A DNA stretch of 64,000 nt from a virus. A program made the translations under genes and the position numbers. How positions within the stretch are numbered: the stretch's first letter is position 1; every line of letters starts with the position of its first letter. Below are positions 820 through 40,483 of this stretch, one piece after another. Where the stretch lies: IMG/VR virus record IMGVR_UViG_3300027917_000019, positions 1-64,000 of that record; one strand, given 5' to 3'. The notes beneath the pieces were generated by a model. It was not told where the DNA came from. It did not search any database and saw only the letters and a list, made by a program, of their open reading frames with translations.

Positions 820-1956
820 TGCCGGGGCGGTATCGATCCACGTTAGAAAAGCAGGCCAGGGATTCCCTTCCCATAACCCGCGCAGAATGCGTGATTAGAA
901 ACCGTGTTTGATTGTCAATGGAAAAACCCCGACTGCAAACCAGGATACAGGGGCGGCCCGTCCACCTGGCGACCATCGGGGAATCACTGAACAAATGGCC
1001 CCACCGTTTTTTACCACCCTGTCAAAAAACGCCAAGGGGCGCCAGGGTCGCGGGGCCGGCCGGAGCCGGGCTGGCGAGCACCCCTATTCGGGGGCCGGAG
1101 CCACCCCAAACCTCTGCAGCACCCGTGCCAGCGCCAAATTCCCTAATGATTTCAAGCACTTACGAGCGGCCCGTAAGTATGCGGAATCATTGAGGAATTT
1201 GGGCATGACCTAAGTATGCGGAATCATTGAGGAATTCGGGAAACTACTGCGCTTTAGTTCAGTGTCTTGTGAACAAAGGTTTACAGAAGGCGTGTGAACA
1301 AAGGTTTACGAGCCAAATTCCCTAATGATTTCAAGGGTTTGCATGACCATACATCCTAAGTATGCGGAATCATTAGGGAATTCGGCCCCATGCGAGCTCG
1401 CGGGCGACAAATTCCCTAATGATTTCAAGGGTTTAGATATATGGTCACGTAAGTATGCGGAATCATTAGGGAATTTTGACCTTACCCTCCGCGCGCCCGC
1501 ATGCGAGAGGGCCGAATTCCCTAATGATTTCAAGGGTTTAGATGTATGGTCACGTAAGTATGCGGAATCATTGGGTTTTTGGCCCTACGCGCGCGTGCGC
1601 GCTCGCCCAGCCGCAGCGAATTCCGTAATGATTTCGGGGGTTTAGATGTATGGTCACGTAAGTATGCGGAATCATTGAGCTTTTCAGCTGGGGTCTAGAG
1701 ACCCCAGGCGGGGTCGGCTGACCCCATATAACTTTGCATGAATTAAGCTAATTCATGGGGACAAGTAGCCCCAGTGAGCTAAGTATGCGGAATCATTGAG
1801 CTTTTTGGTGGAGACTTTTGTACCCACCCGTAAACCCTTGAAATCATTGAGCTTTCGGCAAACACTGCACAAATGTTCAGGAAAACCGCCGGCCCGGGGA
1901 GCTGGCGCCGAATTCCCCAATGATTTCGCATACTGAACAAAATACTGAACAAAACC

Positions 1957-6944: not shown

Positions 6945-7153
6945 GAGTTTTCATCCAAGGTGCACAGGAAGTCTGCAACGCTCTGCACCCACCACTCCAT
7001 AGCGTGCTTGTGGAGGTTTCTGAGGCGTCTAACATCGGGTTGCTCTAGGACCAGCTGCTGACCGTTTAGGAGGCGGTGCGTGGCTTTTAGGGCCCTTGTT
7101 TCGTGAACTAGAGCCCACCGCACTGCAGTGCTGGCTGGGTCATAATCAGTCAT
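6941..7153 (-). CDS. Tandem-array small protein, member 5 (70 aa)
   Basis: QQLVLEQPDVRRL box, WWVQSVADFLCTLDE end. More divergent, with no LFD motif. It overlaps member 4 by 8 nt and member 6 by 4 nt. Function is unknown. Confidence 0.72.
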   Translation of the reverse strand: MTDYDPASTAVRWALVHETRALKATHRLLNGQQLVLEQPDVRRLRNLHKHAMEWWVQSVADFLCTLDENS

Positions 7154-7340
7154 TTAGTATTTTCTCAAGAAATTCAACAAAGATATATACCCACTCAGTA
7201 GCAATTGTTTCTCTACAATCCTCTATAAATTTCACTTGGCCCTGTTCCACGACAAGCACTGCTTTGAGTAGCACATGCCAGGTCTCTATTATCACTTGAT
7301 AACTGTGTATGATTTGTTTTCGTCGTGAGGAATAGTACAT
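7146..7340 (-). CDS. Tandem-array small protein, member 4 (64 aa)
   Basis: AVLVVEQGQVKFI box, TEWVYIFVEFLEKIL helix. It shares 1 nt with member 3. Function is unknown. Confidence 0.72.
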   Translation of the reverse strand: MYYSSRRKQIIHSYQVIIETWHVLLKAVLVVEQGQVKFIEDCRETIATEWVYIFVEFLEKILND

Positions 7341-7892: not shown

Positions 7893-8097
7893 CTAAGCTC
7901 CACTCTAATATTTCCTGCAGCGCATATATCCACCGCTGATTAATGCACTCTTTTCCGTTCTCAAGCACCAAAAGATCATAGCCTTCTGTAACAAGCTGAT
8001 TTTCTACACGCACTACATTATCATGTAAATCTTGTGTGTAGTTAAGGGCCCATCGGGTCCAATAGCTTATCCATGCTAATCTAGGTTCCCTTTTCAC
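7885..8097 (-). CDS. Tandem-array small protein, member 1 (70 aa, GTG start)
   Basis: The first family member in transcription order. It has the NQLVTEGYDLLVL box and WIYALQEILEWSLDE end. The final EWSL recalls the WSLL tails of nearby proteins but is followed by DE. Function is unknown. Confidence 0.7.
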   Translation of the reverse strand: MKREPRLAWISYWTRWALNYTQDLHDNVVRVENQLVTEGYDLLVLENGKECINQRWIYALQEILEWSLDE

Positions 8098-8102
8098 GAA
8101 AA

Positions 8103-8183
8103 CTAACCATAGCTAAGCCAAGTCCCCAGAACAACTAGAGAAACAAACAAAACAGCATTCAGGTAGTATTCTACTGGATTCAT
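8103..8183 (-). CDS. 26-aa membrane micropeptide
   Basis: It starts MNPVEYYL, then has one hydrophobic helix (NAVLFVSLVVLGTW) and ends LSYG. The ATG forms an ATGA overlap with the stop of the upstream gene, which supports translation. It is probably a single-pass inner-membrane peptide. Function is unknown. Confidence 0.6.
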   Translation of the reverse strand: MNPVEYYLNAVLFVSLVVLGTWLSYG

Positions 8184-8389
8184 AGCTTGGTAGAAAGCCT
8201 GCGATTGATATTCAGTGCAACAATACCCTCCAACACTGCAACAGTCGCAGACTCATATTCCTCATGAACCTGATAGTTCGTCTTGTCATCGATAGCTACA
8301 AGACCAATCTTCCCGTTTTCCTTCTCGATGATGTGTAGTGTGAAACTAGAAAGTGTTTGGTCTTCGCGCTTCTCTTCAGACTTTGTCAT
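8180..8389 (-). CDS. Hypothetical protein, 69 aa
   Basis: The ATG at 8389 overlaps the upstream stop as ATGA, so this start is preferred to 8401. It is charged at the N-terminus (MTKSEEKRED) and then beta-rich. It does not belong to the LVVE family. Function is unknown. Confidence 0.65.
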   Translation of the reverse strand: MTKSEEKREDQTLSSFTLHIIEKENGKIGLVAIDDKTNYQVHEEYESATVAVLEGIVALNINRRLSTKL

Positions 8390-14616: not shown

Positions 14617-14926
14617 TGTTAAGTGTGCGTATGATGAGGGGAACTACTCGTTTACTCTACAGCAGCTTGGTTACCCTGCGTTTGTAGTACCAGAAGGTTA
14701 CCTACAGCGACTTGTTGATGTGTTCCTGGAACCAAGTGAATATGAATTGTCTGAGAGCCTTTGGAACACTTTTCGCGTGACAGAAGCTGAACAATCTCTT
14801 ATACTTGAACGATCCAGCAAGGGCAAGTCCGTGCTGTTGATGAAGCTGTCCAAATCAGCCGCTAAGCAGTTGGCTGAGAAGATAGAAAGTATCCACGGGT
14901 CTGTGATTCGTTCTTATACTTGGTAG
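14594..14926 (+). CDS. Hypothetical protein, 110 aa
   Basis: Mixed alpha/beta with a C-terminal helix (SKSAAKQLAEKIESIHG). It overlaps the micropeptide before it and abuts the RNR gene, so it may be co-expressed with it. I do not recognise the family. Confidence 0.62.
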   Translation: MTTSNVSSVKCAYDEGNYSFTLQQLGYPAFVVPEGYLQRLVDVFLEPSEYELSESLWNTFRVTEAEQSLILERSSKGKSVLLMKLSKSAAKQLAEKIESIHGSVIRSYTW

Positions 14927-14934
14927 GGAAGAGT

Positions 14935-16908
14935 ATGCGAGATTTCAAGCTTTCCGCTGGGTTCCTCGATCAATTTCGAGGACGCCAGCCGGAGTGGGGC
15001 CCTGTTGGGTATGTTTCATACAAGCGCACATACGCCAGACAAAAAGACGACGGTACTGTTGAGGAGTTTTGGGAGACCTGTGCTAGAGTCGTTGAAGGTG
15101 TCTACAGTGCTCAGAAGAGACACTGCAGAGAGCTGAAGCTTCCCTGGAAGAACGAGAAGTCTCAGAGATCTGCACAAGAGATGTTCACGAGGATGTGGGA
15201 GTTCAAATGGCTCCCTCCCGGACGTGGCCTCTGGATGATGGGCACAGACTATGTCGACCGTGTAGGCGGTGCGGCATTGAACAGTTGTGGATTCGTCTCT
15301 ACGAAGGGTATAACCGAAGACTTCGCAGATCCCTTCGTGTGGATGATGGACATGCTCATGCTTGGCGTTGGTGTTGGCTTTGACACCAAGGGTGCGGGGC
15401 TTGTTCGCATTCAGGAACCAAGGAAGGGGGATGACATTCATGTTGTTGAAGATTCGAGAGAAGGTTGGATCGATCTCGTTAGGAGAGTACTTACTGCATA
15501 CTCTGGGCGCGGTAATCTTCCTAACAGTGTTGACTGGAGTTTGGTTCGCCCCTTGGGCAGCCCTATTCGTGGATTTGGAGGCACTGCCTCTGGACCCGGT
15601 CCTTTGGATGAGTTGGTAACGTCTATACAGGAAATTCTCAATGAACTGGTCGGAAAAACGATCACTTCAGAAGCTATTGTGGATCTTTGTAATCTCATCG
15701 GCAGGTGTGTTGTCTCTGGTAACGTGCGACGCTCTGCTGAAATAGCTTTTGGCGATCCACATGATCAAAGCTTTTTGGAGTTGAAAGACCCCCGTAAGCA
15801 CCGTATAGCTTTGAAACACCACAGGTGGGCATCAAACAACTCTATCTTTGCCGACGTTGGGATGGACTACTCAATCGTTGCAGAGATGACCGCCAAGAAT
15901 GGTGAGCCTGGCTATGAATGGCTAGAGAACGCTCAGGACTATGGCAGAATGGGAGGACTTCCGAACTATCGCGACAAGCGCGCGATGGGTGGAAATCCTT
16001 GCCTTGAGCAGACTCTTGAGGATAGAGAGTTGTGTTGCCTGGTTGAAACGTTCCCCAGTCGTCATGATAGCTACGAAGACTACGAAAAAACACTCAAGTA
16101 CGCCTACTTGTACGCCAAGAGTGTCACACTAGTCTCTACGCATGATTTTCGAACCAATGCAGTGATGATGAGGAATCGCCGCATTGGTTGTTCCATGTCT
16201 GGAATTTCAGAGGCTATGGCTAAGCAAGGTCGCCGCGAGTTCTTCACGTGGTGCGATCAAGGGTACAACTACCTTGAAGAGCTTGACGATGTTTACTCCG
16301 AGTGGCTTTGTATCCCTAGGAGTATCAAGAAGACCTCTGTCAAGCCTTCTGGTACTGTATCTCTTCTCCCGGGCGTTACACCGGGCATCCATTATCCACA
16401 CGCTGAGTACTACATTCGTAGGATCCGTTTTCAAGAGGACCATCCGATCGTTGATGCCCTCTATCAGTGTGGGTACACTATAGAGAAGGACACGTATAGT
16501 CCGAATACAGTTGTAGTGGAGTTCCCTGTACAGTCTAGTCGTTACGACCGTAGTAAGGACGAAGTAAGTATGTGGGAACAGCTTGAGAATGCGGCTCAGA
16601 TGCAGCAGTACTGGGCTGACAATCAGGTAAGCGTTACAGTTACTTTCAAGCCTGAAGAGGCTAAAGACATCAAATATGCTCTAGAATTGTACGAAGTGCG
16701 TTTGAAGGGTGTGAGCTTTTTGCCTGTGGAAGAGCACGGCTACGAACAAGCTCCGTACGAAACAATCACTGCAGAACAGTATTATGAGCGAGCCTCTAGG
16801 TTGGACTACGAAAAGCTTCCCAAGATACTTCAGGCTCAACAGACTCTCCACGATACAACAGAAAGATTCTGTGATGGAGATTCTTGTGTAGTAGTTCGCA
16901 AAGCTTGA
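14935..16908 (+). CDS. nrdJ: Class II (adenosylcobalamin-dependent) ribonucleoside-triphosphate reductase, 657 aa
   Basis: Makes deoxynucleotides from ribonucleotides. The monomeric Lactobacillus-type enzyme is recognised by NSCGF (first active cysteine, about 117-120), NPCLEQ (thiyl-radical cysteine, about 353-358), ELCCLVE and PSGTVSLLPGVTPGIHYPHA in the barrel. The C-terminal redox pair is CDGDSC (about 645-650). Length is slightly below that of cellular forms (about 720-740). The ATG at 14935 follows AGGGAAGAG; an upstream TTG at 14920 is less likely. Use of B12 suggests a host that imports or makes cobalamin. Confidence 0.93.
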   Translation: MRDFKLSAGFLDQFRGRQPEWGPVGYVSYKRTYARQKDDGTVEEFWETCARVVEGVYSAQKRHCRELKLPWKNEKSQRSAQEMFTRMWEFKWLPPGRGLWMMGTDYVDRVGGAALNSCGFVSTKGITEDFADPFVWMMDMLMLGVGVGFDTKGAGLVRIQEPRKGDDIHVVEDSREGWIDLVRRVLTAYSGRGNLPNSVDWSLVRPLGSPIRGFGGTASGPGPLDELVTSIQEILNELVGKTITSEAIVDLCNLIGRCVVSGNVRRSAEIAFGDPHDQSFLELKDPRKHRIALKHHRWASNNSIFADVGMDYSIVAEMTAKNGEPGYEWLENAQDYGRMGGLPNYRDKRAMGGNPCLEQTLEDRELCCLVETFPSRHDSYEDYEKTLKYAYLYAKSVTLVSTHDFRTNAVMMRNRRIGCSMSGISEAMAKQGRREFFTWCDQGYNYLEELDDVYSEWLCIPRSIKKTSVKPSGTVSLLPGVTPGIHYPHAEYYIRRIRFQEDHPIVDALYQCGYTIEKDTYSPNTVVVEFPVQSSRYDRSKDEVSMWEQLENAAQMQQYWADNQVSVTVTFKPEEAKDIKYALELYEVRLKGVSFLPVEEHGYEQAPYETITAEQYYERASRLDYEKLPKILQAQQTLHDTTERFCDGDSCVVVRKA

Positions 16909-27223: not shown

Positions 27224-27252
27224 TTGACAAGAGGTTCGAGGGTACCTAGATT
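27224..27252 (+). promoter_or_regulatory. Promoter TTGACA-N17-TAGATT of the tRNA island
   Basis: The predicted transcription start is about 4 nt before the first tRNA. Confidence 0.75.
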
Positions 27253-27489: not shown

Positions 27490-27492
27490 CCC

Positions 27493-27521
27493 TTGACAGG
27501 GTTTGTGATCGTGACTATGTT
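27493..27521 (+). promoter_or_regulatory. Promoter TTGACA-N17-TATGTT
   Basis: An internal promoter that would feed the segment with aberrant tRNAs and Y-like RNAs. Confidence 0.6.
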
Positions 27522-27610
27522 GCGATACTTGACAACTCAATAGGTAGATTTTCGTGCTTCCTTAGGAAGTACTGTCAGTGCGGCCCAATTACGGTCGACG
27601 ACTGACTTAT

Positions 27611-27733
27611 GCCTGGGTAGTATAAAGTCCAGCCGTGCCCAATGTCCGGTTATACGCCGATTGAAGCGGATGGTGAGAAAGTACACTTGAACTTAGAATT
27701 CAAGAGGTGGTGGTTTGAATCCATCCCCGGGAG
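27611..27733 (+). tRNA. Aberrant tRNA-like RNA (Leu/Ser-like)
   Basis: The 3' part has a T-arm GGTGG-TTTGAAT-CCATC and acceptor strand CCCGGGA that pairs imperfectly with GCCTGGG at 27611. The D-loop is expanded. A stem CTTGAA/TTCAAG with loop CTTAGAA looks like a Leu(TAG) anticodon arm but sits where a variable arm would be. About 120 nt in all. Probably not a normal decoder. Confidence 0.4.
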
Positions 27734-27762
27734 ACACTTTTGAGAGTCTTTAGGCTCTCTAT

Positions 27763-27833
27763 ACCGAAGCAGCTCTGGCAGAGCACCCACACATGGTGGG
27801 AGGTCGGTGGTTTAAATCCATCCTTCGGTGCCA
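27763..27833 (+). tRNA. Aberrant tRNA-like RNA (CAT-containing loop)
   Basis: Acceptor ACCGAAG/CTTCGGT and D-arm are good and CCA is encoded. The anticodon stem CCCAC/GTGGG encloses only 5 nt (ACATG) and the T-loop is TTTAAAT. Decoding is doubtful. Confidence 0.5.
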
Positions 27834-27837
27834 TTAT

Positions 27838-27921
27838 GGGACAGTAGCTCAGGATAGAGCGCTTGTATCCGTCATCGAGCGTGACAAGAGGTCGGAGAGT
27901 CGACACCTCCCTGTCCCCCCA
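27838..27921 (+). tRNA. Aberrant tRNA-like RNA with 17-nt anticodon loop
   Basis: Acceptor GGGACAG/CTGTCCC, normal D-arm and encoded CCA, but CTTGT/ACAAG encloses 17 nt and the T-loop is GTCGACA with an A:C pair. No anticodon can be assigned. Confidence 0.5.
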
Positions 27922-27925
27922 TTTT

Positions 27926-27990
27926 TGGTGAATGCAACAGCGATTACATCAAACCATACTGAACAAATATCACTGTTATTTTTGTCACCG
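27926..27990 (+). ncRNA. Y-RNA-like element A
   Basis: Outer stem TGGTGA/TCACCG, inner stem ACAG-C-GAT / ATC-A-CTGT, loop starting TACATC, and 3' internal loop TATTTTTG. It lies 4 nt after a tRNA-like CCA and 5 nt before tRNA-Trp. Elements B, C and D share this layout with different stem sequences that preserve pairing. The proposed partner is the Ro60 protein at 38873. Confidence 0.65.
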
Positions 27991-27995
27991 CTTTT

Positions 27996-28069
27996 ACGTC
28001 GTAGAGTCATGGCGACCAAACTGCCTCCAAAACAGTTCTGAGAGGGTTCGATTCCTTCACGGCGTGCCG
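27996..28069 (+). tRNA. tRNA-Trp(CCA)
   Basis: Acceptor ACGTCGT/ACGGCGT, anticodon loop CTCCAAA, C:A pair at positions 31-39, short D-loop, canonical T-loop. The 3' end is encoded as CCG. Confidence 0.78.
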
Positions 28070-28070
28070 A

Positions 28071-28205
28071 CAGTTTAGAGAATGCCTGAGTTGGGATTAC
28101 ATCGCTTGAACACGACGATTGCAGGTTCGATTCCTGTCCACTCCACCATATGGGGTGGCCTATGGTAGGTAGAAAAACATCTCTCTCGCTTTTGTCTCTA
28201 AACTG
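28071..28205 (+). ncRNA. yrlA-like: YrlA-type Y RNA with permuted tRNA-like module (element D)
   Basis: Outer stem CAGTTTAGAGA/TCTCTAAACTG (11 bp), internal loop with TCGCTTTTG on the 3' side, inner stem GGGAT/ATCTC, then TACATC. Inside, in permuted tRNA order, are a T-arm (GCAGG-TTCGATT-CCTGT, 28121-28137), acceptor strand CCACTCC, ACCA, TAT, acceptor strand GGGGTGG (28152-28158) and a D-arm-like CCTA-TGG-TAGG. YrlA RNAs have this design, with the Ro-binding stem in place of the anticodon arm. It lies 1 nt after tRNA-Trp and 5 nt before tRNA-Arg. Confidence 0.78.
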
Positions 28206-28210
28206 CATTT

Positions 28211-28286
28211 GCTCCGGTAGCTCAGAGGAAGAGCACAACGCTACGAACGTTGGATTGCGGGGGTTCGAATCCCTCTCGGAGTGCCA
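28211..28286 (+). tRNA. tRNA-Arg(ACG)
   Basis: Acceptor GCTCCGG/TCGGAGT, loop CTACGAA, encoded CCA directly followed by element B. Confidence 0.9.
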
Positions 28287-28370
28287 TGGTGGATGCGATT
28301 TGTGATTACATCTCTGAGTAAGTGATCTTGAGCTACGGCTCATGCAAACATCACAGTCATTTTGCCACCA
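28287..28370 (+). ncRNA. Y-RNA-like element B
   Basis: Outer stem TGGTGG/CCACCA and inner stem TGTGAT/ATCACA, both compensated relative to A and C. The loop starts TACATC and holds a hairpin TGAGC-TACG-GCTCA. The 3' internal loop is GTCATTTTG. It begins at the base after the upstream CCA and ends 5 nt before the next tRNA-like gene. Confidence 0.65.
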
Positions 28371-28375
28371 ACTAT

Positions 28376-28442
28376 TACGCGGTAGACTAAATGCAAGTTG
28401 CCCTAAGGGGAGATGGTGGGTCGCATCCATCCCGCGTAGCCA
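28376..28442 (+). tRNA. Mini tRNA-like RNA without a normal anticodon arm
   Basis: Perfect acceptor TACGCGG/CCGCGTA with encoded CCA, D-stem GACT/AGTT, T-arm GGTGG-GTCGCAT-CCATC. Only 14 nt separate the D and T arms, room for a CCC-TAA-GGG stub. At 67 nt it cannot decode normally. Confidence 0.55.
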
Positions 28443-28443
28443 A

Positions 28444-28518
28444 GCTTCGGTAGCTCAGTGGTAGAGCGCTTGCCTGAAGAGCAGGGCGTCGGGGGTTCAA
28501 TTCCCTCTCGAAGCACCA
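28444..28518 (+). tRNA. tRNA-Phe(GAA)
   Basis: Acceptor GCTTCGG/TCGAAGC, loop CTGAAGA, encoded CCA directly followed by element C. Confidence 0.9.
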
Positions 28519-28590
28519 CGGTGAATAGATAAATGATTACATCGCTGTTTTGGTTAACTGCTATCCTACGTCATTGTCGTTTTGTCACCG
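28519..28590 (+). ncRNA. Y-RNA-like element C
   Basis: Outer stem CGGTGA/TCACCG, inner stem AATGAT/GTCATT, loop starting TACATC, 3' internal loop GTCGTTTTG. It begins at the base after the tRNA-Phe CCA and ends 3 nt before tRNA-Asp. Confidence 0.65.
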
Positions 28591-28593
28591 TCT

Positions 28594-28667
28594 GCTACGT
28601 TGTGCATCTGGGATGCAGATCGGCTGTCTACCGGTTGAGATGGGTTCGATTCCCATACGTAGCGCCA
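28594..28667 (+). tRNA. tRNA-Asp(GTC)
   Basis: Acceptor GCTACGT/ACGTAGC, loop CTGTCTA, short 5-nt D-loop, encoded CCA. Confidence 0.85.
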
Positions 28668-29210: not shown

Positions 29211-29285
29211 GTGGCTGTAGTGTAACGGTTAGCACAACTGGTTGTGGTCCAGTTAGTGAGGGTTCAAATCCCTCCAGTCACACCA
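29211..29285 (+). tRNA. tRNA-His(GTG)
   Basis: Acceptor GTGGCTG/CAGTCAC, loop TTGTGGT, encoded CCA. A G precedes position 1, as expected for His. Its 3' end overlaps the protease gene on the other strand. Confidence 0.9.
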
Positions 29286-29988
29286 CTCCGGGCACAACAC
29301 CACGGCGTCTGAGAACCTCTTCAACAGACGTTCTGTGTACGATACCTACCATATTCCAGGCGCCACGTCGCCATCCCCAAGAGACTAGCCCAACAATCTC
29401 TCCGGAATCGTTGAAAACGGGTCCACCACTCATTCCAGGGTACACAACAGCATTGATGAGTGTGTACGGCATTCCGTCGGATCCGGATCTAAGTGGGGAT
29501 ACTACTTGTCCACGACTGAAGTAGAAGACGTAACCAATGGGGTTTCCAAAAGCCTGGACAGAGTCTCCATAAGTCACGTCAGTAGTTGACACGGAAGCTG
29601 TGCCGTGGTGGGCTCTAGACAGTACAGAGTCTGGTGAAAGTAGAGCAACATCCTCTACGTCCCACACAATCTCTGGATGAAACAGATACGTGTTTGAAAA
29701 CTTTCCGGTGGCTACGTCATAATCTTGAAACGTACCAATCAACACTTCATCATTAACGTTGCCGTCAAAGTCTATGACACAGTGTGCGGCAGTTACAACG
29801 TAAGAATGTACAAAGGCACCAGAACAATAAGGGCGTAGTTCTCCAGATTCAGTTTTGAAAACTAATGTAGCAACGGTATCAAAATTGTCGAGTATGGATT
29901 GTTCGGGAGTAACTGGGGTAGTAACTACTTGCGTAGGAACGCAGGAAAGTAGTACTGAAGATAGGAAGACCAATAGTGCCTTGTGCAT
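29278..29988 (-). CDS. Trypsin-like serine protease lipoprotein, 236 aa
   Basis: The lipobox LLSC places the lipidated cysteine at residue 16. The catalytic triad is H69 (TAAHC), D113 (DVEDVALL) and S187 (GMSGGP), the chymotrypsin/S1 fold. It would be anchored outside the membrane. It is the only leftward gene in the tRNA island, with TAGGAG before its ATG. Its C-terminus overlaps tRNA-His. The target is unknown; surface-protein cleavage or superinfection exclusion are possibilities. Confidence 0.85.
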   Translation of the reverse strand: MHKALLVFLSSVLLSCVPTQVVTTPVTPEQSILDNFDTVATLVFKTESGELRPYCSGAFVHSYVVTAAHCVIDFDGNVNDEVLIGTFQDYDVATGKFSNTYLFHPEIVWDVEDVALLSPDSVLSRAHHGTASVSTTDVTYGDSVQAFGNPIGYVFYFSRGQVVSPLRSGSDGMPYTLINAVVYPGMSGGPVFNDSGEIVGLVSWGWRRGAWNMVGIVHRTSVEEVLRRRGVVPGVV

Positions 29989-32245: not shown

Positions 32246-32317
32246 GCCCTATTAGCTCAGTGGTAGAGCAGCGGCCTCTAAAACCGTGGTGGGTGGGTTC
32301 GAATCCCTCATGGGGCG
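32246..32317 (+). tRNA. Amber-suppressor tRNA, anticodon CTA
   Basis: Acceptor GCCCTAT/ATGGGGC, D-arm GCTC-AGTGGTA-GAGC, anticodon loop CTCTAAA with C:A at 31-39, T-loop TTCGAAT with one T:T mismatch in the stem, discriminator G, then CTA in place of CCA. Loop and C:A pair match the phage tRNA-Trp (CTCCAAA) except for one base, suggesting descent from it. Confidence 0.75.
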
Positions 32318-32336
32318 CTAAAGATGATATACTAAT

Positions 32337-34833: not shown

Positions 34834-35063
34834 TGAAAATTGTAGCAACAAACGAACAGCTGTATCTGGTGGATATCTATGATCTCGGGGATATCGGTGA
34901 AGAAACACCAGATCAGCAGCGCTTCAACAGGGATATCACGGTCCCTAGTAACCTTTTGTTCATGGAGTATGCTGAGTACCTGCAGACTCTCTATTCACAG
35001 GCAGCTGGGGAACGAGAGTTTCAAGAAAGGCGTGATTCCATGAAGGTTGTGGTGTCTGGATGA
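34833..35063 (+). CDS. Hypothetical protein, 76 aa
   Basis: The start overlaps the previous stop. Acidic, mixed alpha/beta. Its end overlaps the deformylase start (ATGA), so these genes are translationally coupled. Function is unknown. Confidence 0.6.
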   Translation: MKIVATNEQLYLVDIYDLGDIGEETPDQQRFNRDITVPSNLLFMEYAEYLQTLYSQAAGEREFQERRDSMKVVVSG

Positions 35064-35572
35064 CTGTTCGTTCCATCAGTGTGTGGCCTCACGAGGTTTT
35101 GCGTGAGGTAGCAGAAGCTGTAGAGGATGTGCATGCTGAAGAGGTTGTGCAACTGGTCAAAGACCTTCGTGACACGACAACGGCTTACAGGGCCCACGGT
35201 GTTGCTGCTCCACAGATAGGTGTGTCAAAGCGGGTCATTATCGTACGAGACGGTGAGATACATAGGGTCCTAATTAACCCAGAGTATCTCACCACCTCTG
35301 CAGTCCCCATTACTTCGTTTGAAGGTTGTTTGTCCTTTCCTGGCGTAAGAGTGAAGATTAAGCGTGCAGATTCTGTGCATATTTCGTACTTAGATGAACA
35401 TGGACACGCTCATTCTTGGGAAGCAGAAGGTTTGTCTGCGGTGGCGGTTCAACACGAGATTGATCACCTGAATGGCGTTGTCATGATAGATCATCTTTCA
35501 AAGTTGGAGCGCAACATAGCTCTACGGCGCCTCAAGAAGGTTAAGAAGAGGTTGGGAGCATACGCTGCATGA
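35060..35572 (+). CDS. def: Peptide deformylase, 170 aa
   Basis: Removes the formyl group from new proteins. The three conserved motifs are GVAAPQIG (47-54), EGCLS with metal ligand C90, and QHEIDHLNG with ligands H132 and H136 and catalytic E133. Full length for a bacterial enzyme. Phage deformylases occur in several large phages. It fits the initiator tRNA and other translation genes nearby. Confidence 0.95.
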   Translation: MTVRSISVWPHEVLREVAEAVEDVHAEEVVQLVKDLRDTTTAYRAHGVAAPQIGVSKRVIIVRDGEIHRVLINPEYLTTSAVPITSFEGCLSFPGVRVKIKRADSVHISYLDEHGHAHSWEAEGLSAVAVQHEIDHLNGVVMIDHLSKLERNIALRRLKKVKKRLGAYAA

Positions 35573-38872: not shown

Positions 38873-40483
38873 ATGGCAAATCAGCAGCTTTTCAGCAACA
38901 AGGGTAAGACCCCTAAGACCGATACCGTAAACCGTGCTGGCGGAAAGGCGTATGAGCTAGAGGCGAAGGCCGCTCTTGCGCAGTACGCTGCAACGGGAAT
39001 GTTGGGATCTACCTTCTACGCGAAGGCAGAGGACCATCTTGATGCTGTCTTGGAGCTTGCAAAGGCAGTTCCTCCGAAGTATCTTGCACAGGTGGCTGTG
39101 TACGCTCGCCGTACCGCTCACTTGAAGGATATGCCTGCACTGTTGCTTTCAGTGCTTGCAACTCGTGACACTGAACTTTTCAAGCAGGTTTTCCCGTTGG
39201 TTATCGACAACGGACGTATGGTGAGGAACTTCGTTCAGATCATGCGCTCTGGTGCCGTGGGTCGTACTTCTTTGGGCTCTGCTCCGAAGAAGGCTGTACA
39301 AACCTGGCTTCGCAACCAGTCTGATGAGTACATCTTCAAGGCATCTGTGGGTAATTCTCCGTCCCTTGCTGACGTGATTCGCCTTGTACACCCGCGTCCG
39401 AAGACGAAGTCTCGTGAGGCTCTTTATCGCTATCTTATTGGGCTTCCCATGAAGGGCTACAAGTCCAAGCTTCCGAAGATCGTCAAGGAATTTGAGAAGT
39501 TCAAGACTCAGAAGGCCGAGAAGCGCCAGATTCCTGACGTGCCTTTCCAGATGCTCACCGCTCTAGATCTTTCTGAGGCTGAGTGGTCTAAGATCGCTGA
39601 GAACGGTGCTTGGCAGTTTACGCGCATGAACCTCAACACGTTTGAGCGTCATGGTGTATTCAAGGACTCAAACATGGTGAAGATGATTGCCGATCGTCTT
39701 CAGGATGAGGGACTTGTACTGAAGTCTCGTAACTATCCTTACCAGATGTTTACGTCCTTCAAGGCTACTTCTTCCAAGATTCCTGCGAAGGTTCGTAACG
39801 CTTTGCAGACTGCTTTGGACCACTCTTTCAAGAACGTTCCCGACTACTCAACCATTCTTGACAAGCCGGACGTACATGTGCTTGTAGACGTGTCTGCGTC
39901 TATGGGTGGCCCGGTTTCTGGTCACGGGTACCACACCACTTCTGAGCAGGTAGCACACGTTGATGTGGGTGCTCTGTTCGCAGCGGCTATTCGCGTTCAG
40001 AACGACGAGGGTTTGGTTATTGCATTCAATAACCATGCTCAGGAAGTAGACCTAAACGCGCGTGACTCAATCATCACCAATGCAACAAAGGTTCGTGAGT
40101 GTCTCGGCGGTGGAACCGACTGCTCTGCTCCTCTGCGTTACTTGAATATCAAGAAGGCAACGGGGGATTTGGTGGTTATGATCAGTGACTATGAATCTTG
40201 GTACTCCGTTCAGTCAAAGCACCACAGCGGTCCTGGTTTCATGTCTGGGTCTACTGACATGATGCAGGAGTGGAAGAAGTACAAGAATCGCAACCCGAAG
40301 GCTGTTTTGGTTTGCATCGATACGATTCCTCAGTGCACGACTCAGGCTGTTGGAAAGGACGTACTACTTGTAGGCGGCTTCAACGACAAGGTCTTTGACG
40401 TAATCGCGACTTTCCTTGAGGCCGGTGGGGATGATACCCATTGGGTAAAGGAAATCGAGAAGACTTCTCTTAAGGTAAACTAA
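38873..40483 (+). CDS. rsr: Ro60/TROVE-domain RNA-binding protein, 536 aa
   Basis: An N-terminal HEAT-like TROVE ring (about 1-325) is followed by a von Willebrand A domain with the MIDAS site DVSAS (about 338-342), GGGTDCS and ISDYES. Cellular orthologues (Ro60/Rsr) bind misfolded RNAs and Y RNAs and work with exonucleases such as PNPase in RNA decay and rRNA maturation. Codon use is strongly biased (AAG, GAG, CGT), suggesting high expression. It has its own promoter. The four Y-like RNAs at 27926-28590 are the likely partners. Confidence 0.92.
   Translation: MANQQLFSNKGKTPKTDTVNRAGGKAYELEAKAALAQYAATGMLGSTFYAKAEDHLDAVLELAKAVPPKYLAQVAVYARRTAHLKDMPALLLSVLATRDTELFKQVFPLVIDNGRMVRNFVQIMRSGAVGRTSLGSAPKKAVQTWLRNQSDEYIFKASVGNSPSLADVIRLVHPRPKTKSREALYRYLIGLPMKGYKSKLPKIVKEFEKFKTQKAEKRQIPDVPFQMLTALDLSEAEWSKIAENGAWQFTRMNLNTFERHGVFKDSNMVKMIADRLQDEGLVLKSRNYPYQMFTSFKATSSKIPAKVRNALQTALDHSFKNVPDYSTILDKPDVHVLVDVSASMGGPVSGHGYHTTSEQVAHVDVGALFAAAIRVQNDEGLVIAFNNHAQEVDLNARDSIITNATKVRECLGGGTDCSAPLRYLNIKKATGDLVVMISDYESWYSVQSKHHSGPGFMSGSTDMMQEWKKYKNRNPKAVLVCIDTIPQCTTQAVGKDVLLVGGFNDKVFDVIATFLEAGGDDTHWVKEIEKTSLKVN

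What the first reader, a model, noticed from the sequence alone, without database searches (positions are those of the whole stretch)
27926..28590. A family of four Y-RNA-like structured RNAs alternating with tRNAs
Elements at 27926-27990, 28071-28205, 28287-28370 and 28519-28590 share one plan. Each has an outer stem, a 5' internal loop after an ATG or ATA, an inner stem ending in GAT (or GGGAT), a loop opening TACATC, and a U-rich 3' internal loop ending TTTTG. Stem sequences differ but pairing is kept: TGGTGA/TCACCG, TGGTGG/CCACCA, CGGTGA/TCACCG, CAGTTTAGAGA/TCTCTAAACTG outside; ACAGCGAT/ATCACTGT, TGTGAT/ATCACA, AATGAT/GTCATT inside. That covariation is seen directly. Each begins 0-4 nt after a tRNA (or tRNA-like) 3' end and ends 3-5 nt before the next, so RNase P and 3' tRNA processing would release them. 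A Ro60 gene lies 10 kb downstream. Two of the four start at the very base after CCA.
Basis: partly seen in the sequence, partly recalled or inferred. Interest (0 to 1): 0.92.

Follow-up and report, generated by a model that had tools for sequence, protein, structure and literature searches.

The report
Y RNAs threaded between phage tRNAs
Between the tRNA genes of this phage lie four small RNAs of the Y RNA family, the partners of the Ro60 protein (which the phage also carries), placed so exactly that the enzymes that trim tRNAs would cut them out; relatives with the same placement turn up in dozens of other viruses and some bacteria.

Summary
A covariance model built from 34 elements of other viruses, with no sequence from this phage, finds exactly these four places in the 64 kb window (E 2.8e-10, 4.5e-7, 2.5e-6, 1.7e-4) and nothing else at E<=10. 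The family has a variable outer helix, an internal loop (5' AAUGC, 3' YUUUUG) and a variable inner helix ending GGAUUACAU; 12 of 13 pairs show compensatory changes. In bacterial genomes the same model lands beside Ro60 genes and Rfam YrlA RNAs, so these are Y RNAs. The phage encodes a Ro60 10.3 kb downstream. About 130 relatives from viral contigs show the placement is general: 0-2 nt after a tRNA and, where a tRNA follows closely, 2-6 nt before it. Y RNAs in bacteria and phages are already known; new to my knowledge are the precise interleaving with tRNAs (implying release by tRNA processing), the family size and, in related viruses, Y RNAs carrying 23S rRNA segments. Ro60 binding, RNase P release and function remain untested.

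The parts
27926..27990 (+). Y1: short Y RNA (65 nt), open apical loop
   Evidence: R2 hit 27925-27991, 45.4 bits, E 2.8e-10, model without window sequences
28071..28205 (+). Y2: Y RNA (135 nt) with a YrlA-type permuted tRNA module, 11-bp outer helix
   Evidence: R2 hit 28075-28201, E 2.5e-6; Rfam YrlA aligned over model 1-114, 17.2 bits, below threshold
28121..28172 (+). Permuted tRNA module inside Y2: T-arm GCAGG-TTCGATT-CCTGT (28121-28137), acceptor strands CCACTCC/GGGGTGG (28138-28144/28152-28158) joined by ACCATAT, then a D-arm-like hairpin CCTATGGTAGGTAG
   Evidence: Rfam tmRNA_permuted hit 28121-28158, E 0.004, below its gathering score; MFE fold
28287..28370 (+). Y3: Y RNA (84 nt), loop with a GAGC-TACG-GCTC hairpin
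   Evidence: R2 hit E 4.5e-7; Rfam YrlB aligned over model 1-78, 19.0 bits, below threshold; starts at the base after CCA of tRNA-Arg
28519..28590 (+). Y4: most divergent Y RNA (72 nt)
   Evidence: R2 hit E 1.7e-4; starts at the base after CCA of tRNA-Phe, 3 nt before tRNA-Asp
27838..27921 (+). tRNA-like sequence with acceptor stem GGGACAG/CTGTCCC and CCA, 4 nt before Y1
   Evidence: fold; not called by ARAGORN or Rfam
27996..28068 (+). tRNA-Trp(CCA) between Y1 and Y2
   Evidence: ARAGORN
28211..28286 (+). tRNA-Arg(ACG) between Y2 and Y3
   Evidence: ARAGORN
28375..28442 (+). tRNA-like sequence with acceptor stem TACGCGG/CCGCGTA and GCCA, right after Y3
   Evidence: fold; not called by ARAGORN or Rfam
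28444..28518 (+). tRNA-Phe(GAA) before Y4
   Evidence: ARAGORN
28594..28667 (+). tRNA-Asp(GTC) after Y4
   Evidence: ARAGORN
38873..40483 (+). Ro60 (Rsr) orthologue, 536 aa, with MIDAS motif VDVSASM
   Evidence: Pfam vWA_Ro60 2.1e-12 and TROVE 2.5e-5; PHROG 850 3.1e-35; D. radiodurans Rsr 2nvo 8.5e-14; 46% identical to phage Mx1
27493..27521 (+). nearest upstream promoter-like site on the array strand (others at 27224 and 26997); none found between 27600 and 29320 on that strand
   Evidence: consensus scan only

Best explanation
The four elements are Y RNAs of a phage Ro60 ribonucleoprotein, made as passengers of the tRNA array. Shown: they belong to one RNA family, defined by an outer helix, an internal loop (AUGC / YUUUUG), an inner helix and the GGAUUACAU core, that includes Y RNAs lying beside Ro60 genes in bacteria; element 2 carries the permuted tRNA module typical of YrlA; the phage encodes a Ro60. 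Inferred from position: they have no promoter or terminator of their own; one transcript is cut by the tRNA 3'-processing enzyme just before each Y RNA and by RNase P at the next tRNA, leaving an RNA whose ends are closed by the outer helix plus a tail of about 3-5 nt. Inferred from known bacterial Y RNAs: the outer helix and internal loop bind the outside of the Ro60 ring and gate it, while the variable end acts as an adaptor. The tRNA-like module of Y2 would address the RNP to tRNA-handling enzymes or to PNPase, for decay or surveillance of structured RNA during infection, or act as a decoy for tRNA-cutting defence nucleases. Y1, Y3 and Y4 would be gates or adaptors with other partners.
For: R2 (no window or Mx1 sequence) finds exactly the four elements and both Mx1 copies. 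Covariation: 90.2% of cells paired against 61.5% after shuffling; score 0.736 against 0.239 shuffled and at most 0.27 when slid; 12 of 13 pairs with compensatory change in an RNAalifold structure predicted without guidance. Inner-arm coupling over 133 elements 6.35 against 3.72 +- 0.10 shuffled. R2 run on 274 gammaproteobacterial genomes hits beside a Ro60 gene and an above-threshold YrlA (69.4 bits), and in Ruegeria in a Ro60-YrlA-RtcB cluster where one hit coincides with an Rfam YrlA match. Ro60 in the window. TROVE in 38 of 56 Y-bearing records against 0 of 19 comparison records (Fisher p 6e-8). Gap to the next tRNA 2-6 nt in 32 of the 37 elements followed by a tRNA within 12 nt; the collecting pattern did not constrain this side. 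Promoter-like sites on this strand only upstream of the Y block. RYPER precedent for Y RNA-Ro60-PNPase: PMC4726728.
Against: No expression, processing or binding data for this phage. Rfam's own thresholds for YrlA and YrlB are not reached (17.2 of 69, 19.0 of 97), so the link runs through the new model. Y4 is weak (E 1.7e-4). Two of the flanking 'tRNAs' are degenerate. Two phages with Ro60 or a likely Ro60, Streptomyces NootNoot and Listeria P100, have no recognisable element of this family in the stretches searched, so phage Ro60 does not require it. The comparison records for Ro60 co-occurrence are mostly shorter contigs. The outer helix was used to collect the relatives, so its covariation count is partly selected; the inner helix was not.
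Confidence: 0.88

Rival explanations
1. They are Y RNAs by descent, but here mainly tRNA-maturation spacers or array stabilisers: stable helices that separate tRNAs and present good RNase P and 3' processing sites, with Ro60 binding incidental.
For: The spacing is set to the base on both sides, and phage tRNA arrays need spacing.
Against: A spacer does not need the conserved AAUGC / GGAUUACAU / UUUUG bases or a permuted tRNA module; many relatives are not next to a tRNA (47 of 122 upstream gaps exceed 12 nt; runs of Y RNAs in L063 and L071); Ro60 co-occurs.
Confidence: 0.06
2. Decoy: the Y2 tRNA-like module (and the others indirectly) titrates host anticodon nucleases or tRNA-based defence, with Ro60 only protecting the RNA from decay. 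This is a narrower function for the same RNAs, not a different identity.
For: PMC7790460 proposes that the YrlA tRNA-like domain may competitively inhibit an anticodon nuclease; the phage also carries 38 tRNA genes and a tmRNA, as expected under tRNA-cleaving defence.
Against: Three of the four elements have no tRNA module; the permuted module lacks an anticodon arm; no RtcB or RNA_ligase family match in the record.
Confidence: 0.2
3. The elements are unrelated spacers or decayed tRNAs whose similarity is coincidental or due to recent duplication.
For: Single-sequence folding z-scores are modest for three of the four.
Against: An independent model from other viruses finds exactly these four; the helices differ in sequence and covary across viruses; the scanner gives about 0.3 false hits per shuffled pass against 138 candidates.
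Confidence: 0.01

Closest known systems
Bacterial Y RNAs YrlB and YrlA (Rfam RF02565, RF02553), as in the Salmonella rsr-yrlBA-rtcBA operon
   Same: Same plan and same conserved bases: YrlB consensus GaAUGC..GGAUUACAU..AUC..AUUUG; YrlA consensus GAAUGC + T-arm + permuted tRNA + UUGUC. Model hits sit beside Ro60 and YrlA in bacteria.
   Different: Below Rfam's thresholds; four copies interleaved with tRNAs instead of lying in a Ro60-RtcB operon; no RtcB match in the record.
Deinococcus radiodurans Y RNA in RYPER (Rsr - Y RNA - PNPase)
   Same: Ro60 orthologue present (Rsr 2nvo is the best solved match); Y RNA as tether and gate is the working model (PMC4726728).
   Different: No evidence here for PNPase binding; the DrY sequence was not compared directly.
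Y RNAs reported in phages (mycobacteriophages per Chen et al. 2014, cited in PMC12282133; YrlA in several phages per Sim and Wolin 2018, cited in PMC7765460; candidate Y RNAs near an Rsr homologue in Listeria phage CKA15)
   Same: Phage-borne, with a phage Ro60 and tRNA genes nearby.
   Different: The primary papers were not readable here, so whether interleaving with tRNAs was already described cannot be excluded. In Listeria P100 and Streptomyces NootNoot no member of this sequence family was found.
Vertebrate Y RNAs
   Same: A stem with an internal loop as Ro60-binding site and a variable loop domain.
   Different: [quoted passage not shown] the vertebrate bulged-C site was not tested for.

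Membership tests
Bacterial Y RNA (broad class) | Two helices separated by an internal loop, with conserved core bases and a variable apical module | tested here: met
   R2 hits to all four, E 2.8e-10 to 1.7e-4; RNAalifold structure and pair counts
Bacterial Y RNA (broad class) | Relatives of the same sequence family lie next to Ro60 genes in bacteria | tested here: met
   L169: Ro60, then two R2 hits, then YrlA above threshold; L170 (Ruegeria): Ro60, R2 hit, YrlA, R2 hit that is also a YrlA match, tRNA, R2 hit, RtcB
Bacterial Y RNA (broad class) | A Ro60 gene in the same genome | tested here: met
   38873-40483, vWA_Ro60 2.1e-12, TROVE 2.5e-5
Bacterial Y RNA (broad class) | At least one Y RNA of the set has a tRNA-like domain (abstract of Chen et al. 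2014, from memory) | tested here: met
   Y2 permuted T-arm, acceptor and D-arm-like module
Bacterial Y RNA (broad class) | Binds Ro60 | not testable with these tools
   needs pull-down or gel shift
Rfam RF02553 YrlA | Score above the gathering threshold (69 bits) | tested here: not met
   Y2 17.2 bits over model 1-114; not filed as a member of this narrow family
Rfam RF02565 YrlB | Score above the gathering threshold (97 bits) | tested here: not met
   Y3 19.0 bits over model 1-78; not filed as a member of this narrow family
tRNA (or decayed tRNA) | Cloverleaf in normal order, tRNA covariance model match | tested here: not met
   No ARAGORN or Rfam tRNA match over any of the four elements
Ro60 / Rsr (the protein) | TROVE domain plus C-terminal vWA domain with MIDAS motif | tested here: met
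   VDVSASM, GGGTDCS and ISDYESW read from the alignment
Vertebrate Y RNA | 7-bp helix with bulged C and 3-nt opposite bulge as Ro60 site | not tested
   described in PMC4726728; no vertebrate comparison run

The most novel reading that the evidence does not exclude
Tailed phages run an expanded Ro60 system in which a common Y RNA handle carries interchangeable modules that copy RNAs of the translation machinery: permuted tRNAs, tRNA bodies in normal order and, in some viruses, 23S rRNA segments (GTPase-associated centre; the H69-H71 region). All would be matured for free by tRNA-processing enzymes because the genes are interleaved with tRNAs. The Ro60 RNP would thereby be aimed at, or shield, tRNA and ribosome components during infection.
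Probability: 0.35. Interest if true: 0.9.

Novelty: new variant of a known kind. Interest (0 to 1): 0.7.

Why it matters
What Ro60 and Y RNAs do is an old open question, and most work rests on a few bacteria with one or two Y RNAs. A phage with four Y RNAs of different modules plus its own Ro60, and more than a hundred relatives in viruses, gives natural variation, covariation and a model (R2) to find more. The placement predicts both ends of each RNA almost to the nucleotide, so one small-RNA sequencing experiment tests biogenesis. If tRNA processing releases Y RNAs, that explains how viruses can multiply them without promoters or terminators. The rRNA-like modules in relatives, if real mimics, would tie Ro60 to ribosome parts directly.

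Tried and rejected
Ro60 protein as a single-sequence query against viral contigs: no relatives; the DNA pattern joining a tRNA T-arm to the Y core worked instead, with a permuted-core control giving 9 stretches against 75, two of the 9 being true loci. DNA similarity of the array to known phages: essentially only tRNA matches. Rfam at its own thresholds: only tRNAs and tmRNA reach them. Streptomyces phage NootNoot (41 kb around Ro60) and Listeria phage P100 (50-85 kb not fetched): no member of the family; P100 was tried because abundant unidentified RNAs lie near an Rsr gene in the related phage CKA15 (PMC12282133). YrlB (RF02565) over 274 gammaproteobacterial genomes: nothing, but its control rang nowhere, so uninformative. 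23S mimicry by alignment of whole elements to E. coli 23S: clear for L033; in L030 it rests mainly on one exact 20-nt run; not significant for L016, L034 and L064; in L043 only by the shared 18-nt motif. A motif scan with GAC instead of GAY was my slip and found nothing; repeated correctly. A structure prediction of Ro60 was not run, as sequence evidence suffices.

Full report
WHAT IS THERE. The window is the first 64,000 bases of a 165,819-base viral record. From 27.2 to 40.6 kb it carries 38 tRNA genes and a tmRNA, all on the + strand. Four elements lie in the gaps between tRNAs or tRNA-like sequences: Y1 27926-27990, Y2 28071-28205, Y3 28287-28370, Y4 28519-28590. Each has an outer helix, AATGC or a variant, a helix ending in GAT, then TACATC, and on the 3' side the inner helix partner, a pyrimidine-rich stretch ending TTTTG and the outer helix partner.

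IS IT MORE THAN CHANCE. Four sequences and their single-sequence folds would not settle it: shuffle z-scores are -2.2, -3.1, -1.3 and -1.2. I therefore looked for relatives. Myxococcus phage Mx1 has the closest Ro60 among phages (43% by tblastn; 46% in alignment), a comparable tRNA array, and two elements of the same plan placed 1-2 nt after tRNA-Pro and tRNA-Ile. A pattern joining a tRNA T-arm to ATGC and GAYTACAT gave 75 stretches in IMG/VR, against 9 for the same pattern with the core letters permuted, two of which were the same true loci. A motif-plus-helix scanner over these loci listed 138 candidates (133 distinct with the window's four), against 0.33 false hits per pass on Markov-shuffled loci.

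STRUCTURE AND COVARIATION. RNAalifold on 42 short elements predicts two helices without guidance, with compensatory changes at 12 of 13 pairs. Against that structure 90.2% of cells pair (61.5% after shuffling the 3' letters) and the covariation score is 0.736 (0.239 shuffled; at most 0.27 with the partners slid). The outer helix was used in collecting the elements, so its count is partly selected; the inner helix was not, and it is 80% paired with five of six pairs compensated. Exchanging arms between elements lowers the outer coupling from 8.35 to 5.77 +- 0.12 and the inner from 6.35 to 3.72 +- 0.10. The decisive test: model R2, built from 34 elements of other viruses with no sequence of the window or Mx1, finds in the 64 kb window exactly the four elements (45.4, 34.2, 31.6, 25.2 bits; E 2.8e-10, 4.5e-7, 2.5e-6, 1.7e-4) and nothing else at E<=10. 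It finds both Mx1 elements and nothing in permuted-pattern control loci or E. coli 23S rRNA DNA. A search of the whole record with R2 adds no further place.

WHY Y RNA. First, the conserved bases are those of the Rfam Y RNA consensus sequences: YrlB aligns over its full length with Y3 (GaAUGC, GGAUUACAU, AUC, UUUG in the same places), and YrlA over its full length with Y2. Both are far below Rfam's thresholds, so I do not file the elements in those narrow families. Second, R2 run on 274 gammaproteobacterial genomes found one with two strong neighbouring hits; there a Ro60 gene (vWA_Ro60 1e-16) is followed by the two hits and an above-threshold YrlA (69.4 bits). In the Ruegeria genome reached by the tRNA-linked pattern, the order is Ro60, hit, YrlA, hit that is also a YrlA match, tRNA, hit, RtcB. 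Third, the window encodes a Ro60 at 38873-40483 (vWA_Ro60 2e-12, TROVE 2.5e-5, PHROG 850 3e-35; best solved match D. radiodurans Rsr) with the MIDAS residues in place. Fourth, of the viral records with tRNA-linked elements, 38 of 56 have a TROVE gene, against 0 of 19 records from chance and control matches (Fisher p 6e-8; the comparison contigs are mostly shorter).

ELEMENT 2. Its loop holds a T-arm (GCAGG-TTCGATT-CCTGT), the two acceptor strands in reversed order joined by ACCATAT (CCACTCC...GGGGTGG), and a D-arm-like hairpin: a tRNA opened at the anticodon side and closed at its ends. Rfam sees this as a permuted tmRNA-type acceptor (E 0.004, below its threshold). The same kind of module is in both Mx1 elements and in about 39 of 133 relatives by a crude classifier. 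It is the hallmark of YrlA.

PLACEMENT. Y3 and Y4 begin at the base after an encoded CCA, Y2 two bases after tRNA-Trp; Y1, Y2 and Y4 end 5, 5 and 3 bases before the next tRNA. In the relatives the 5' gap is mostly 0-2 nt (partly imposed by the search pattern), and the 3' gap, which was not imposed, is 2-6 nt in 32 of the 37 elements with a tRNA within 12 nt. Promoter-like sites on this strand occur only upstream of the Y block and no terminator-like site on it occurs within (consensus matches only). The simplest reading is one transcript, cut by the tRNA 3'-end enzyme and RNase P. That is inference. Not all relatives are next to a tRNA: some contigs have runs of nine or ten Y RNAs (L063, L071, L030). 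Acidobacterial, rhodobacteral and myxococcal genome contigs also have tRNA-linked members, so the arrangement is not exclusive to viruses.

MECHANISM. Known bacterial Y RNAs bind Rsr through the lower stem, and in D. radiodurans tether it to PNPase and gate substrate entry (PMC4726728). The simplest mechanism here is the same: helix, loop and core are the Ro60 handle and gate; the variable end is the adaptor. Y2 would recruit tRNA-binding partners or PNPase, or act as a decoy for anticodon nucleases, a role suggested for YrlA in PMC7790460. No RtcB or RNA_ligase match was found in the record, so coupling to RNA repair is not supported here.

WHAT IS KNOWN AND WHAT IS NEW. Y RNAs in bacteria and mycobacteriophages are known (Chen et al. 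2014, cited in PMC12282133), and YrlA in several phages is mentioned in PMC7765460. The primary paper was not available. New to my knowledge, with that caveat: base-exact interleaving of several Y RNAs with tRNAs in a phage array, the size of this family in viruses, and Y RNAs with 23S rRNA-like modules. I rate the finding a new variant of a known kind.

IN PASSING. In L033 a Y RNA right after tRNA-Ala contains the GTPase-associated-centre segment of 23S rRNA (Rfam LSU E 9e-8, below its threshold). In L030, L043, L099 and a Myxococcales contig the Y core is followed within about 15 nt by ACGGTCCTAAGGTAGCGA or its first 16 bases, of the 23S H69-H71 region. L096/L097 have a GTPase-centre segment inside a different long helix. 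These deserve their own study.

Noticed in passing
L033:3251-3551 (+): Y RNA of about 300 nt right after tRNA-Ala whose module contains the 23S rRNA GTPase-associated-centre segment (E. coli 1014-1088; Rfam LSU 36.1 bits, E 9e-8, below threshold): a possible L11-site mimic on a Y RNA handle.
   Followed up: partly
L030:209-412 (+); L043:404-593 (+); L099 about 1324-1575 (-); L143 about 846-1012 (-): Y RNAs in which the core GAYTACAT is soon followed by (TA)ACGGTCCTAAGGTAGC(GA), a highly conserved 23S rRNA stretch (H69-H71); diverged versions may be in L016, L034 and L064.
   Followed up: partly
L096 about 1300-1650 (-); L097 about 8010-8340 (+): Near-identical non-coding RNA in two viral contigs with the same 23S GTPase-centre segment, closed by a 19-nt helix TTGTTATAAAAATAAGTCC/GGACTTATTTTTATAGCAA but without the Y core.
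   Followed up: no
L063, L071, L030: Runs of nine or ten different Y RNAs in single viral contigs, many not next to a tRNA.
   Followed up: partly
L069:697-825 (-); L013:11494-11624 (-); L068:922-1060 (+): Y RNAs whose module looks like a tRNA body in normal, unpermuted order.
   Followed up: no
L101, L104, L111, L120, L145, L150 (Acidobacteria); L105, L123, L127, L129, L142 (Rhodobacterales); L143 (Myxococcales): tRNA-linked Y RNAs in bacterial genome contigs; whether chromosomal, prophage or viral contamination was not resolved.
   Followed up: partly
window 32246-32318: tRNA with CTA anticodon (ARAGORN calls it Pyl), probably an amber-reading tRNA; another lies in L033 at 7101-7174.
   Followed up: no
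window 29278-29988 (-): Trypsin-like protease gene on the opposite strand inside the tRNA array.
   Followed up: no
window 35060-35572; 14920-16908: Phage peptide deformylase within the tRNA array region, and a B12-dependent ribonucleotide reductase upstream.
   Followed up: no
window 27490-27835: Further degenerate tRNA-like sequences (27667-27729, Rfam tRNA 19 bits; 27764-27833 folds as a cloverleaf ending GCCA) missed by ARAGORN: the array may hold more unusual tRNAs.
   Followed up: no
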